From: Clostridia bacterium
GTDB taxonomy: Bacteria; Bacillota; Clostridia; Christensenellales; Aristaeellaceae
DNA: 39,119 nucleotides
Assembly (NCBI GenBank): GCA_017471885.1
Contig: JAFURI010000120.1
Span: forward strand, 1 to 39,119
Reading direction: 5' to 3'
Of the stretch, positions 26,210 through 29,835 are shown one piece after another. The notes below the pieces were generated by a model. The model saw only the letters and a list, made by a program, of their open reading frames with translations, made no database searches and was not told where the DNA came from. The translations under genes and the position numbers were made by a program. The first letter of the stretch is position 1; each line of letters starts with the position of its first letter.

Positions 26210-27283
26210 TCAGTCCCGGGGCATGCCGCGGAAGAAGTCTGCATCCGCAGTATGGATGCGGCACTGGCCGATCCTGTCCAGCAGGATGATCCGTAGCGCC
26301 TTGCCGGAGGCCTTTTTGTCCATGCCCATGGCGGCGACAAGGTCGCTCTCGGGGATATCGGGCAGGCGCATGGGCAGATCAAGGGCGCTCAGCAGCGCAT
26401 CCAGCCGGGCGGCGGAGCCGGCTTCGGTCAGCCGACGGCTCTCCGACAGCCGGGTGATGACGCTCATGCCCAGCGACACCGCTTCGCCGTGGCGGAAACC
26501 TGTGTAATGCTGGCACTTTTCCACAGCATGGGCGATGGTGTGGCCGAAGTTCAGCGTCATGCGCAGACCGGTATCATGCTCGTCCTGCTCCACCACGTCG
26601 GCCTTGTGCCGGATACAGCGGCGGAGGATTTCATCAATATGGGTCATTACGCCCCTGCGTCCGCCGGGCGCGGCCGCCTCCAGCAGACGGAAGAGCTCCG
26701 GATCGCCGATGCAGCCGTACTTGACCACTTCGCCCAGACCGTCGCGCCAGTATTCGGGGGTGAGCGTGTTCAGCGTTTCAGGATCGCACAGCACAAGGCT
26801 GGGCTGCCAGAACGCGCCCACCAGATTCTTGCCCTGCGGCAGATCCACCGCTACCTTGCCGCCTACGGAGGAATCCACCTGTGCCAGCAGCGTGGTGGGA
26901 ATCTGCACAAAGCGAACGCCGCGCAGATAGGTGGCGGCGGCCAGCCCTGCCAGATCGCCGATCACGCCGCCGCCCAGCGCAATGACGGCGTCCCTGCGGG
27001 TGATGCGGCTGTCGCACAGGAAGCTGTACACCTCGCTCAGCTTGTCCAGGCATTTGGTCTGCTCGCCGTGGGGAAGCACGATGCTGGCGGTGCGGTATCC
27101 TGCAGCGGCAAGGGATTGCTCCACGGTCTGCAGATACAGGGGCGCCACGTGATCATCGGTGATGATCGCCAGGCTGCATTCGCCCAGCGCGCGGCGAAGA
27201 TATTCCCCCGCCTGCCCCATAAGACCGTGACCAATATGGACGGGATACGAACGCTCGCCCAGCGCAACAGTAATGGTCGGCAT
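26210..27283 (-). CDS. aroB: 3-dehydroquinate synthase
   Basis: A 357-residue enzyme, of normal length, for the second step of the shikimate pathway (DAHP to 3-dehydroquinate, NAD+ and Zn2+ or Co2+ dependent). The motifs are clear: ALGGGVIGDLAGLAAATYLRG, QIPTTLLAQVDSSVGGK, GEVVKYG, and the metal ligands in RMTLNFGHTIAHAVE and RHGEAV. The start at 27283 has AAAGGAG 8 nt upstream. It lies 152 nt downstream of aroF on the same strand with no strong terminator between, so it should share the attenuated aroF transcript. Confidence 0.96.
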   Translation of the reverse strand: MPTITVALGERSYPVHIGHGLMGQAGEYLRRALGECSLAIITDDHVAPLYLQTVEQSLAAAGYRTASIVLPHGEQTKCLDKLSEVYSFLCDSRITRRDAVIALGGGVIGDLAGLAAATYLRGVRFVQIPTTLLAQVDSSVGGKVAVDLPQGKNLVGAFWQPSLVLCDPETLNTLTPEYWRDGLGEVVKYGCIGDPELFRLLEAAAPGGRRGVMTHIDEILRRCIRHKADVVEQDEHDTGLRMTLNFGHTIAHAVEKCQHYTGFRHGEAVSLGMSVITRLSESRRLTEAGSAARLDALLSALDLPMRLPDIPESDLVAAMGMDKKASGKALRIILLDRIGQCRIHTADADFFRGMPRD

Positions 27284-27375
27284 AAACCGGCTCCTTTCAA
27301 TAAAGCAAATCCGCCCGCGCCGCGCGCACACAACAGGAACGGAGGAAACAGGAAAGACCGCAAAACGGGATTCTT

Positions 27376-27419
27376 AAGGGGTGAACCCTTTGGGCAGGGT
27401 GCAGGGACGGATTCCCTGC
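27376..27419 (-). repeat. Palindromic spacer between aroF and aroB
   Basis: Two inverted repeats stand close together: GCAGGGA/TCCCTGC (27401-27419) and AAGGG/CCCTT (27376-27390). There is no T-run. It resembles dispersed intergenic palindromes rather than a gene-specific terminator; the rest of the 152-nt gap shows nothing else. Confidence 0.4.
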
Positions 27420-27435
27420 GTCCGTATCCTCACCG

Positions 27436-28449
27436 TCAGATTTCGCGACCCACCACAGCGGCAATCTTGCGGATATCATCCATTACCTCGGAGAACAGCT
27501 CCGGACGGATGGACTGCGCGCCGTCGCACAGTGCGTGGGCGGGATCGTTATGCACCTCGATCATCACGCCGTCCGCACCCACGGCGATGGCGGCGCGGGC
27601 CAGAGGCTCCACCATCCAGAACTTGCCCGTGGCGTGGCTGGGATCCACAATCACCGGCAGATGGCTCAGCTTCTTTACGGCGAGGATCGCGGACAGATCC
27701 AGCGTGTTGCGGGTATAGGTCTCATAGGTGCGGATGCCGCGCTCGCACAGGATCACGTTGGGGTTGCCGCCGGACATGATATACTCCGCGCTCATCAGCC
27801 ATTCCTCGATGGTGGAGGACAGACCGCGCTTGAGCAGGATCGGCTTGAGGGTCTGGCCCAGCAGGCGCAGCAGGTCAAAATTCTGCATATTGCGTGCGCC
27901 CACCTGAATGCAGTCCACCTTCTCATCGAAGATCTCGATGTCATAGGGGCTCATGATCTCCGTCACAATGGGGAGCCCCGTGGCAGCGCGGGCTTCCTCC
28001 AGCAGTCGGAGACCTTCGTATTTCAGGCCCTGAAAGGCGTAGGGCGAGGTGCGGGGCTTGAAGGCGCCGCCGCGCAGCACGGTTGCGCCGGCTTTCTGCA
28101 CCTCCTGCGCCACATAGGTGATCTGCTCCTTGCTCTCCACAGAGCAGGGGCCGGCCATGACGCTGAGCTTCCTGCCGCCGACCTCGGTATTGCCTACCTT
28201 GATAACGCTCTGCCCGGGGTGGAACATCCTGTTGGCCTTCTTGAAGGGTTCGGCCACCTTCATGATGCGTTCCACGCAGCGGAAGGATTCAATCTGCGCC
28301 GGATCGACCTGGCTGGTATCGCCGATCAGACCCAGAATGGTAAGATCAGAGCCGAACATGGGATTGACGCTGATGCCCTTGGTGACAAGAATGCTGGTCA
28401 GCTTGTCGATATCCTGCTGCTGTGTGCCCTGCCGCAAAACGATGATCAT
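27436..28449 (-). CDS. aroF: 3-deoxy-7-phosphoheptulonate (DAHP) synthase
   Basis: A 337-residue type I-beta DAHP synthase, the entry enzyme of aromatic amino acid synthesis (phosphoenolpyruvate plus erythrose 4-phosphate). An N-terminal ferredoxin-like regulatory domain of about 70 residues (MIIVLRQGTQQQDIDKLTSIL) precedes the barrel with MAGPCSVES, LRGGAFKPRTSPYAFQG, LLKRGLSSTIEEW and VIVDPSHATG. The N-terminal domain is where Phe/Tyr feedback occurs in relatives. The start at 28449 follows AAAGGAGG. The upstream region carries a Phe/Tyr-rich leader peptide and a terminator, so expression is almost certainly set by aromatic amino acid supply. Confidence 0.97.
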   Translation of the reverse strand: MIIVLRQGTQQQDIDKLTSILVTKGISVNPMFGSDLTILGLIGDTSQVDPAQIESFRCVERIMKVAEPFKKANRMFHPGQSVIKVGNTEVGGRKLSVMAGPCSVESKEQITYVAQEVQKAGATVLRGGAFKPRTSPYAFQGLKYEGLRLLEEARAATGLPIVTEIMSPYDIEIFDEKVDCIQVGARNMQNFDLLRLLGQTLKPILLKRGLSSTIEEWLMSAEYIMSGGNPNVILCERGIRTYETYTRNTLDLSAILAVKKLSHLPVIVDPSHATGKFWMVEPLARAAIAVGADGVMIEVHNDPAHALCDGAQSIRPELFSEVMDDIRKIAAVVGREI

Positions 28450-28482: not shown

Positions 28483-28511
28483 TAAAAAACGGAGGCCCGT
28501 AAAGAGCCTCC
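28483..28511 (-). terminator. Attenuator terminator in the aroF leader
   Basis: GGAGGCTC pairs with GGGCCTCC (8 bp, one G-T pair) around TTTAC and is followed by GTTTTTTATT. It lies 34 nt upstream of the aroF start and inside its own transcript, so it can only act as an attenuator. The 9 nt CTCTTTACG (28506-28498), covering its inner stem and loop, are perfectly complementary to CGTAAAGAG at 28560-28552. Confidence 0.85.
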
Positions 28512-28551
28512 TCATCCATCAGCAGCGTTCCGGAGGAAACGTGCCGTCAGC

Positions 28552-28560
28552 CTCTTTACG
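28552..28560 (-). promoter_or_regulatory. Antiterminator arm of the aroF leader
   Basis: CGTAAAGAG here can pair over 9 nt with 28506-28498 and prevent terminator folding. It begins 7 nt after the leader-peptide stop codon, so a ribosome resting on that stop would cover it, while one stalled earlier would not. Confidence 0.7.
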
Positions 28561-28566
28561 ATACGC

Positions 28567-28629
28567 TTAATACCCGGTGCAGCAAAAGCTGACCGGGAAA
28601 CGAAAAGTAAAGTAAGAAGCGTACAGCAT
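28567..28629 (-). CDS. Phe/Tyr-rich leader peptide of the aroF operon
   Basis: A 20-codon ORF with AGGAGG 6 nt before its ATG encodes MLYASYFTFRFPVSFCCTGY. Four Phe and three Tyr make up 7 of 20 residues, concentrated at codons 3-15. No Trp is present. The last part of the ORF forms its own hairpin (CCCGGTCAGC with GCTGCACCGGG). It precedes a mutually exclusive antiterminator and terminator, the classical architecture of ribosome-mediated attenuation. Low charged tRNA-Phe or tRNA-Tyr would stall the ribosome inside the ORF, leave the antiterminator arm free and allow aroF transcription. The peptide itself probably has no function. Confidence 0.85.
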   Translation of the reverse strand: MLYASYFTFRFPVSFCCTGY

Positions 28630-28666
28630 GCGCAACCTCCTGAAATACTGGGGAAATCTACATACG

Positions 28667-28696
28667 ATTATACCTTTTCTGCCGGGGTGGTGTCAA
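28667..28696 (-). promoter_or_regulatory. Promoter of the aroF leader
   Basis: Perfect -35 TTGACA (28696-28691) and -10 TATAAT (28672-28667) with an 18-nt spacer, about 38 nt before the leader peptide and 218 nt before aroF. It is strong and appears constitutive, as suits control by attenuation. Confidence 0.88.
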
Positions 28697-28748: not shown

Positions 28749-28791
28749 CGGGCGAATTGTATGATAATACCTGCACAGGAGGAGAAGCTTG

Positions 28792-29835
28792 ATGTACAAG
28801 ACCGGCGTATATTTCGGCCGTTTCTGCCCGCCGCACCGCGGACATCTGTACCAGATTATGATGGCGTCCACCCGCTGCGAGAAGCTGGTGGTGGTCATTT
28901 CCGATAACAAGCACCAGACAGAGGCCATCTGCCGCGAGGCCGGTCTGCCTACCATTACCTATCAGCTGCGCAAACAGTGGATGGGCCAGCAGCTGCAGGA
29001 CATGAGCCACATTCAGGTGCGCGTGCTGGATGAAACCGACATTCCCGTCTATCCTGCGGGCTGGGAAAAGTGGTCGCAGCGCATGCGCGAGGTGGTGCCG
29101 GAGGGCATCGACGCGTTCTTTGTGGGCGACCGGGAGATGGATCAGCCCCTGCAGGAGTATTTCCCGGAGAGCGCCATCGAGCTGTTTGATCCCGCCCGCA
29201 GCCGTTATCCCATCTCTGCGACGGAAATCCGGCATGATATCCTCAACAACTGGCACTATATTCTCGGCCCGGCACGTCCCTTCTTCGCCAAGAAGGTGCT
29301 GATTGCCGGTACTGAGTCCACCGGCAAGACCACGCTTACCAAGTGCCTGGCCAAGCTGTACAATACCTCCTGGTCGGAGGAGGTGGGCCGCTACTACGCC
29401 GAGAAGTATCTGGGCGGCGACGAGACCATCTACACCGACGAGGATTTCGGCCGCATGGCCCATCTGCAGGCGGAACAGGATTATCACGCCATGCGTACCG
29501 CCAACAAGGTCTGCTTCTTTGATACGGACGCGGTGGTGACCGACTACTACAGCGAGCTTTACATGAAGCACCGCAACAAGCTGGTGGAGGCCTACATCAA
29601 TCCGGACAAGTACGACGTGCTGCTGTTCCTCACTCCGGACGTGAAGTGGGTGGACGACGGCCAGCGTCTCAACGGCAGCCAGGACCGGCGCGAGATGCTC
29701 AACAGCCGCCTGCTGGACATGTACCGGGAGTTCGGTTTCGAGGACAAGATCATCATGGTGGGCGGCGATTACAACCAGCGCCTGACCCGGGCCATCCAGA
29801 TTGTGGACGACCTGCTGGATCTGGATCAGAAGTAA
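28792..29835 (+). CDS. nadR: NadR-type nicotinamide-nucleotide adenylyltransferase/ribosylnicotinamide kinase
   Basis: A 347-residue bifunctional protein for NAD salvage. The N-terminal nucleotidyltransferase has GRFCPPHRGH (HxGH, residues 15-18) and the matching SRYPISATEIR (137-147). The C-terminal kinase half starts with the P-loop GTESTGKT (173-180) and has DTDAVVTDYY and LFLTPDVKWVDDGQR. It lacks the helix-turn-helix domain of enterobacterial NadR, so it is an enzyme and not a repressor. The start at 28792 follows AGGAGG; a TTG codon lies immediately before. It is transcribed alone and divergently from aroF. Confidence 0.92.
   Translation: MYKTGVYFGRFCPPHRGHLYQIMMASTRCEKLVVVISDNKHQTEAICREAGLPTITYQLRKQWMGQQLQDMSHIQVRVLDETDIPVYPAGWEKWSQRMREVVPEGIDAFFVGDREMDQPLQEYFPESAIELFDPARSRYPISATEIRHDILNNWHYILGPARPFFAKKVLIAGTESTGKTTLTKCLAKLYNTSWSEEVGRYYAEKYLGGDETIYTDEDFGRMAHLQAEQDYHAMRTANKVCFFDTDAVVTDYYSELYMKHRNKLVEAYINPDKYDVLLFLTPDVKWVDDGQRLNGSQDRREMLNSRLLDMYREFGFEDKIIMVGGDYNQRLTRAIQIVDDLLDLDQK

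What the first reader, a model, noticed from the sequence alone, without database searches (positions are those of the whole stretch)
28483..28696. Phe/Tyr leader-peptide attenuator controlling aroF-aroB
Seen directly: a consensus promoter, a 20-codon ORF with AGGAGG and 4 Phe plus 3 Tyr codons, a hairpin within the ORF, a 9-nt arm (28552-28560) beginning 7 nt after its stop, and a terminator (28483-28511) whose inner stem and loop are perfectly complementary to that arm. A six-base CTTTAC segment at the Tyr6-Phe7-Thr8 codons (28612-28607) can also pair with GTAAAG of the arm. The geometry fits ribosome-mediated attenuation: stalling frees the arm and opens aroF, finishing the ORF covers it. 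Established: Phe attenuators are classic in enterobacteria, whereas Firmicutes aromatic genes are more often under T-box or TRAP control. A peptide attenuator for DAHP synthase in this group may be undescribed.
Basis: partly seen in the sequence, partly recalled or inferred. Interest (0 to 1): 0.82.

Follow-up and report, generated by a model that had tools for sequence, protein, structure and literature searches.

The report
Phe/Tyr leader-peptide switch before aroF
Ahead of the first gene of aromatic amino-acid synthesis, this gut Clostridia genome carries a tiny Phe-rich reading frame and RNA hairpins that look like a classic starvation-sensing attenuator, and in some relatives with two copies of the gene one copy seems to have a Phe sensor and the other a Tyr sensor.

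Summary
An SD-led Phe/Tyr-rich ORF plus terminator precedes DAHP synthase in 104 of 157 related regions (2 of 628 shuffles) and in 40 of 89 regions of a class-wide sample. Phe+Tyr is the most enriched of 210 residue sets. Helices covary, though the arm2:arm3 energy test is weak in the window's own group. Leader and T-box were never found together in those 246 regions.

Corrections: in 23 window-type leaders, chosen by eye, Phe7 and Phe9 are invariant and Tyr is not, so this copy probably senses mainly Phe. The likelier arm 1 is 28620-28612. It is not wholly undescribed: Stav 2019 and Brewer 2021 report candidate uORFs with such codons before shikimate genes.

Possibly new: of 37 two-copy genomes examined, 14 have both leaders; in 11 of these one leader has more Phe and the other more Tyr. 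Thirteen of the 14 are from one family. Single-copy leaders are mixed in 65 of 69 cases, two-copy leaders in 10 of 26. Expression was not testable.

The parts
28667..28696 (-). sigma-70-type promoter, TTGACA-18-TATAAT
   Evidence: 12 of 12 positions
28636..28641 (-). Shine-Dalgarno AGGAGG of the leader ORF
   Evidence: 7-nt anti-SD match
28567..28629 (-). leader peptide ORF MLYASYFTFRFPVSFCCTGY*, Phe codons 7, 9, 11, 15
   Evidence: F at codons 7 and 9 in 23 of 23 window-type leaders chosen by eye
28612..28620 (-). arm 1 (GCTTCTTAC, codons 4-6), pairs with arm 2 when the leader is not translated (inferred)
   Evidence: minimum-energy fold of the full leader; arm1:arm2 swap test 0 of 5000 in group I, 3 of 5000 dereplicated
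28573..28597 (-). hairpin inside the ORF, just downstream of the Phe codons
   Evidence: (own arms 6.52 pairs, swapped 4.27, 0 of 5000)
28552..28560 (-). arm 2 (CGTAAAGAG), antiterminator 5' arm, starting at the 7th nt after the stop codon
28520..28546 (-). spacer hairpin that brings arms 2 and 3 together
28498..28506 (-). arm 3 (CTCTTTACG), in the 5' stem and loop of the terminator
   Evidence: antiterminator fold -24.6 kcal/mol
28484..28511 (-). intrinsic terminator (arms 3 and 4) and T run
   Evidence: hairpin -13.8 kcal/mol
27436..28449 (-). aroF, DAHP synthase with N-terminal ferredoxin-like domain
   Evidence: PF00793 and PF18152
26210..27283 (-). aroB, 3-dehydroquinate synthase, next gene downstream
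   Evidence: (26210-27280 searched): PF01761, PF24621

Best explanation
A ribosome-mediated transcription attenuator of the trp/phe type. Shown by sequence: a leader ORF with Phe codons 7 and 9, three competing helices (arm 1:arm 2; arm 2:arm 3; terminator arm 3:arm 4) and their conservation in relatives. Inferred: when charged tRNA-Phe is plentiful, or when the leader is not translated, arm 2 is covered by the ribosome at the stop codon or held by arm 1, the terminator forms and aroF is off. When tRNA-Phe is uncharged the ribosome stalls at Phe7 or Phe9, covers arm 1, and leaves arm 2 free to pair with arm 3, so RNA polymerase reads into aroF (and probably aroB). With codon 6 in the P site and a typical toeprint about 16 nt on (recalled), a Phe7 stall would end just before the ORF hairpin at ORF nt 33. 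The second DAHP synthase gene of this genome carries a leader of similar build with a Tyr run.
For: Anatomy. Conservation: leader plus terminator 104 of 157 regions against 2 of 628 shuffles; class sample 40 of 89. Specificity: F+Y top of 210 residue sets; score 3 or more in 5 of 784 flank windows and 61 of 155 aroF regions. Helices: arm2:arm3 swap test group II 0 of 5000; arm1:arm2 0 of 5000 in each of three groups; ORF hairpin 0 of 5000; pair counts on A1 88.8% paired, covariation score 0 of 500 shuffles. RNA-level constraint: ORF more stable than 95% of synonymous recodings in 13 of 17 group I leaders and 36 of 72 in all. T-box and leader: 40 leader only, 0 both, 10 T-box only, 39 neither in 89 regions.
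Against: No expression data. For the window's own group the arm2:arm3 energy swap test is weak (285 of 5000; dereplicated 153 of 5000), and the number of pairs with changes on both sides is not unusual (73 of 500). Folding ORF through arm 2 alone leaves the last five nt of arm 2 unpaired and uses another partner, and folding without the terminator's 3' arm forms the antiterminator, so arm 1:arm 2 is not dominant by energy. Group III swap tests are confounded by base composition: its control regions also score (1 and 66 of 5000). 53 of 157 regions lack leader plus terminator under the strict filter, 49 of them any leader; by eye some of these have one, others do not (L014 of the same genus, several Christensenellaceae contigs, L112). 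Groups were delimited by eye, and group I of the swap tests also holds four leaders of another build (L009, L013, L016, L017); the invariance of Phe7, Phe9 and Pro12 is partly by choice.
Confidence: 0.88

Rival explanations
1. Nascent-peptide arrest (TnaC-like): the peptide itself, with free Phe or Tyr in the ribosome, causes the stall, rather than uncharged tRNA at the codons.
For: Clostridium leaders share a peptide motif such as WGFYFSAGY, and Anaerotruncus leaders a similar one.
Against: Window-type peptides after the Phe codons differ widely (PVSFCCTG, PGGFAVPG, PADEIVRV) while the RNA hairpin they encode is kept; ORF RNA is more stable than 95% of synonymous recodings in 36 of 72 leaders, so peptide conservation may be partly RNA conservation.
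Confidence: 0.06
2. The ORF encodes a small functional (membrane or toxin-like) peptide, and the terminator is merely its own 3' end.
For: Peptides are short and rich in aromatic residues.
Against: F and Y are strongly enriched, K only weakly, and L, I, V and W are not; peptides diverge; arm 2:arm 3 pairing covaries; no Pfam (3 peptides) or NCBIfam (5 peptides) match. Only DAHP synthase regions were surveyed widely, so the ORF's absence elsewhere is not shown.
Confidence: 0.03
3. A non-ribosomal device (T-box, TRAP-like protein or riboswitch) makes the choice and the ORF is incidental.
For: T-boxes precede the same gene in other Clostridia families.
Against: No Rfam match in the window at gathering and only chance-level ones at E up to 10 around the leader; leader and T-box were not found together.
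Confidence: 0.03

Closest known systems
Candidate uORFs before shikimate metabolism genes, Stav et al. 2019 (PMC6429828; passages, Fig. 6 legend and section 13 seen; figure and supplements not seen)
   Same: Two candidate uORFs with Phe and Tyr before shikimate genes, from a scan of five genomes that included Clostridium novyi.
   Different: Which genes and organisms, and whether competing arms were noted, could not be read; no Phe/Tyr division between paralogs in the passages seen.
uORFC-13-1 motif, Brewer et al. 2021 (PMC8632094; passages seen)
   Same: Upstream of aroF; possible promoter, RBS, uORF with at least one Phe, adjacent terminator; attenuation proposed.
   Different: 24 representatives, only Acholeplasma and environmental sequences; no antiterminator arms described in the passage, though a further base-paired element is mentioned.
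Enterobacterial Phe leaders (pheA recalled; pheST mentioned in PMC1262725 passages)
   Same: Phe codons in a leader ORF, alternative hairpins, terminator (recalled).
   Different: Different gene and phylum; the window matches no Rfam family at gathering.
His leader of hisS/hisZ in Bacilli (PMC2965389 passages) and Leu-rich attenuator of S. aureus ilv-leu (PMC5794164 passages)
   Same: Leader-peptide attenuators proposed or supported in Firmicutes.
   Different: Other amino acids and genes.
T-box leader RF00230
   Same: Precedes the same gene in other Clostridia families (cmscan at gathering confirmed 7 of the 10 class-sample loci with a T-box core).
   Different: Senses tRNA directly, without a leader peptide (recalled); absent here.

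Membership tests
classic ribosome-mediated transcription attenuator | translatable leader ORF enriched in codons of the pathway's product | tested here: met
   SD plus ORF with 4 Phe and 3 Tyr; F+Y top of 210 sets across 155 regions
classic ribosome-mediated transcription attenuator | intrinsic terminator between leader ORF and first gene | tested here: met
classic ribosome-mediated transcription attenuator | antiterminator (2:3) exclusive with the terminator | tested here: met
   9 of 9 pairs in window; helix 3, 92.4% paired; swap test strong in group II, weak in group I
classic ribosome-mediated transcription attenuator | protector helix (1:2) that lets the terminator form without translation | tested here: inconclusive
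   present in the full-length minimum-energy fold and favoured in swap tests (0 of 5000), but two shorter folds prefer other pairings
classic ribosome-mediated transcription attenuator | read-through depends on the leader codons and amino acid supply | not testable with these tools
   needs reporter or RNA-seq
Rfam Phe leader or any Rfam leader | match at the family's gathering score | tested here: not met
T-box | RF00230 match or GGTGGNACCGCG core | tested here: not met
uORFC-13-1 (Acholeplasma aroF) | match to its consensus model | not testable with these tools
   model is not held; only the text passage was read

The most novel reading that the evidence does not exclude
In this family of Clostridia, genomes with two DAHP synthases have divided the sensing work: one leader counts mainly Phe codons, the other mainly Tyr codons, while single-copy genomes use one mixed Phe+Tyr leader. 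This would be an attenuator-level counterpart of enterobacterial isozyme specialisation (AroG for Phe, AroF for Tyr; recalled), reached by changing leader codons. One genome of another family (G256) shows the same split.
Probability: 0.5. Interest if true: 0.6.

Novelty: new member of a known kind. Interest (0 to 1): 0.45.

Why it matters
It indicates that leader-peptide attenuation, which a 2010 survey knew only from Proteobacteria and Actinobacteria before adding a His leader in Bacilli (PMC2965389 passages), controls the entry step of aromatic synthesis in many Clostridia (40 of 89 sampled regions), with T-boxes in others. The Phe/Tyr split between paralogs gives a directly testable rule for how gene duplication and leader codons co-evolve.

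Tried and rejected
Energy of the arm2:arm3 duplex against single-sequence shuffles was a blunt test because GC-rich terminator stems pair with much: 40 of 104 reached rank 10 of 200 or better, 20 of 104 rank 2 or better. The swap tests were added after it. pheA (PF00800): 12 loci, none with a leader candidate in the 400 nt before the chosen start; in the genus it follows coding sequence that looks like aroC (aroC by eye). TrpE (PF04715): no match in 9 of 9 genus genomes including the own one (77% complete), so no Trp leader could be compared there. Second aroF: an ECF-like sigma factor follows, not tyrA (by eye). Six wider regions (L324-L329) were fetched and not analysed. Literature one search was useless (one term matched unrelated words). 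Passages of PMC2494555 and the listing were seen and not used.

Rows dropped and choices made: of 37 genomes with two places, 15 gave a leader call for both; the others had one leader, a T-box or nothing. Of the 20 drawn from the class sample only G256 and G194 gave two, so the split rests on one family (13 of 14). G194 was left out because L188 is a T-box and L314 looks like the end of the upstream gene; with it the count was 14 of 15. In one search I had entered G053 with its Phe copy first; orders copies by similarity to the window AroF, giving 13 of 14. Strict opposition (one leader with more Phe, the other with more Tyr) holds in 11 of 14; G071 and G096 have a tied second leader, and in G010 both lean to Phe. 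Dereplicated to 8 pairs, 579 of 10000 random pairings differ as much, so kinship is not excluded. The window's own leader (4 Phe, 3 Tyr) counts as mixed. One search omitted three single-copy loci by oversight (L025, L204, L244); one search repeats the count with them, at a score threshold of 1.3 instead of 1.5. Of the family search, 91 places were examined, not every listed match. Of 115 class genomes with a match, 89 were examined, one place each. Of the phylum sample, 28 newly returned best loci were looked at, out of 135 genomes with a match: 4 strict leaders, 2 T-box cores. Odds of the novel reading were lowered from 0.55 to 0.5 on recount.

Full report
What is there. On the minus strand a perfect TTGACA-18-TATAAT promoter is followed by an AGGAGG, a 20-codon ORF, an in-ORF hairpin, a 9-nt arm, a spacer hairpin and a terminator whose inner stem and loop complement the arm. 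The gene behind it is a DAHP synthase with a ferredoxin-like domain, then 3-dehydroquinate synthase. No Rfam family matches at gathering, and the peptide matches no Pfam or NCBIfam model.

Is it more than chance. Upstream regions of DAHP synthase were collected from 91 places in family genomes and 80 named contigs; 157 were distinct. An SD-led ORF with an F/Y score of at least 1.5 was found in 108 and with a terminator behind it in 104; dinucleotide shuffles gave 17 and 2 of 628. Testing 20 residues and 190 pairs, F+Y was the most enriched set; F and Y were the two top single residues, K was weakly enriched and W not at all. Score 3 or more was reached by 5 of 784 windows from the flanks of the named loci and by 61 of 155 aroF regions.

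RNA architecture. In the window the antiterminator (arm 2 to arm 3 with the spacer hairpin) folds at -24.6 kcal/mol and the terminator hairpin alone at -13.8. The minimum-energy fold of the full leader pairs GCTTCTTAC (codons 4-6) with arm 2 and leaves the terminator formed, but it is 0.7% of the ensemble; the ORF-through-arm-2 stretch alone folds otherwise, and without the terminator's 3' arm the fold holds the antiterminator. I infer that the choice hinges on timing. Swapping arms among loci of one group: arm 1:arm 2, own better than all 5000 permutations in groups I (n=19), II (60) and III (25), and 3, 0 and 0 of 5000 after dereplication; arm 2:arm 3, 0 of 5000 in groups II and III but 285 of 5000 in group I, which holds the window (153 of 5000 dereplicated). 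Control regions were at chance in groups I and II but not in group III (1 and 66 of 5000), so group III counts for little. The groups were drawn by eye. The ORF hairpin of 23 window-type leaders: own arms 6.52 pairs, swapped 4.27, 0 of 5000. Pair counts on alignment A1 (17 sequences): 88.8% of cells paired, covariation score 0.212 against 0.154 in shuffles (0 of 500), and at most 53.1% paired when the partner is slid; the number of pairs with changes on both sides is not unusual (3, reached by 73 of 500). ORF RNA is more stable than 95% of synonymous recodings in 36 of 72 leaders, 13 of 17 in group I.

Which amino acid. In 23 window-type leaders, picked by eye, codons 7 and 9 are Phe in all, codon 12 is Pro in all, and codon 6 is Tyr in 9. 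In 72 leaders with a full aroF, Phe is written TTT in 80% of leader Phe codons and in 41% of aroF Phe codons. The own genome has a second DAHP synthase (59% identical) with leader MLSNRFGYYYYALLM and a terminator behind it. Of 37 genomes with two places examined, 15 gave two leader calls and one of these was dropped as spurious. In the 14 left, the copy nearer to the window's AroF has the higher Phe share in 13 (means 0.70 and 0.33), and in 11 one leader has more Phe and the other more Tyr. The within-genome difference exceeds random pairing (21 of 10000), but after dereplication to 8 pairs only weakly (579 of 10000); 13 of the 14 are from one family. Single-copy genomes: 65 of 69 leaders hold at least 2 Phe and 2 Tyr; two-copy genomes: 10 of 26, the window's own among them (Fisher p 2.8e-8, not corrected for kinship; draft genomes may hide copies).

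Spread. In a class-wide draw of 157 genomes, 115 had the gene; of 89 regions examined, one per genome, 40 had leader plus terminator under the strict filter, in 24 of 44 families, and several more leaders are visible by eye. T-box cores were found in 10 of the 89, and in none of the 157 family and named regions; none had a strict leader. Cmscan at gathering confirmed RF00230 near aroF in 7 of those 10; an eighth match, in L055, lies more than 2 kb from its aroF.

Literature. In the listings of searches (56 was useless) I saw no paper on this device in the window's group, but the idea is in print: the Fig. 6 legend of Stav 2019 (PMC6429828) names two candidate uORFs with Phe and Tyr before shikimate genes, and Brewer 2021 (PMC8632094) describes uORFC-13-1 before aroF of Acholeplasma with proposed attenuation. 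Naville and Gautheret 2010 (PMC2965389) reported a His leader in Bacilli, and a Leu-rich attenuator was reported in S. aureus (PMC5794164). I read passages or sections, not whole papers; supplements were not available. The library lacks most subscription papers.

Verdict. By comparative sequence evidence a ribosome-mediated attenuator, a new member of a known kind; the paralog split is the part worth following.

Noticed in passing
L282 and L290 upstream of aroF; also L002, L245, L254, L286, L288, L301: A short repeat AGNAYGGNAG (as in GTAGGATGGTAGGACGG) lies within 170 nt upstream of DAHP synthase in 26 of 290 regions (5 of 1450 shuffles, 21 of 2800 flank windows), more often where no leader is found (leader in 6 of 26, against 142 of 264 of the rest). 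Perhaps another control element.
   Followed up: partly
own genome and 8 genus relatives: No TrpE (PF04715) match in 9 of 9 genus genomes including the own one, which is 77% complete: possible Trp auxotrophs, so the pathway here may serve only Phe and Tyr.
   Followed up: partly
27284-27435: The aroF-aroB gap holds a GC-rich palindrome-like stretch (GCAGGGAATCCGTCCCTGC...), by eye similar to the gap in L003; whether it ends or processes the transcript is unknown.
   Followed up: no
28789-29835: Divergent NadR-like gene (name by eye from the sequence, not searched) starts about 90 bp from the leader promoter.
   Followed up: no
L180, L186, L188, L190, L253, L256, L258: The same gene is under a T-box (RF00230) in other Clostridia families; no strict leader was found in the 10 regions with a T-box core.
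   Followed up: yes
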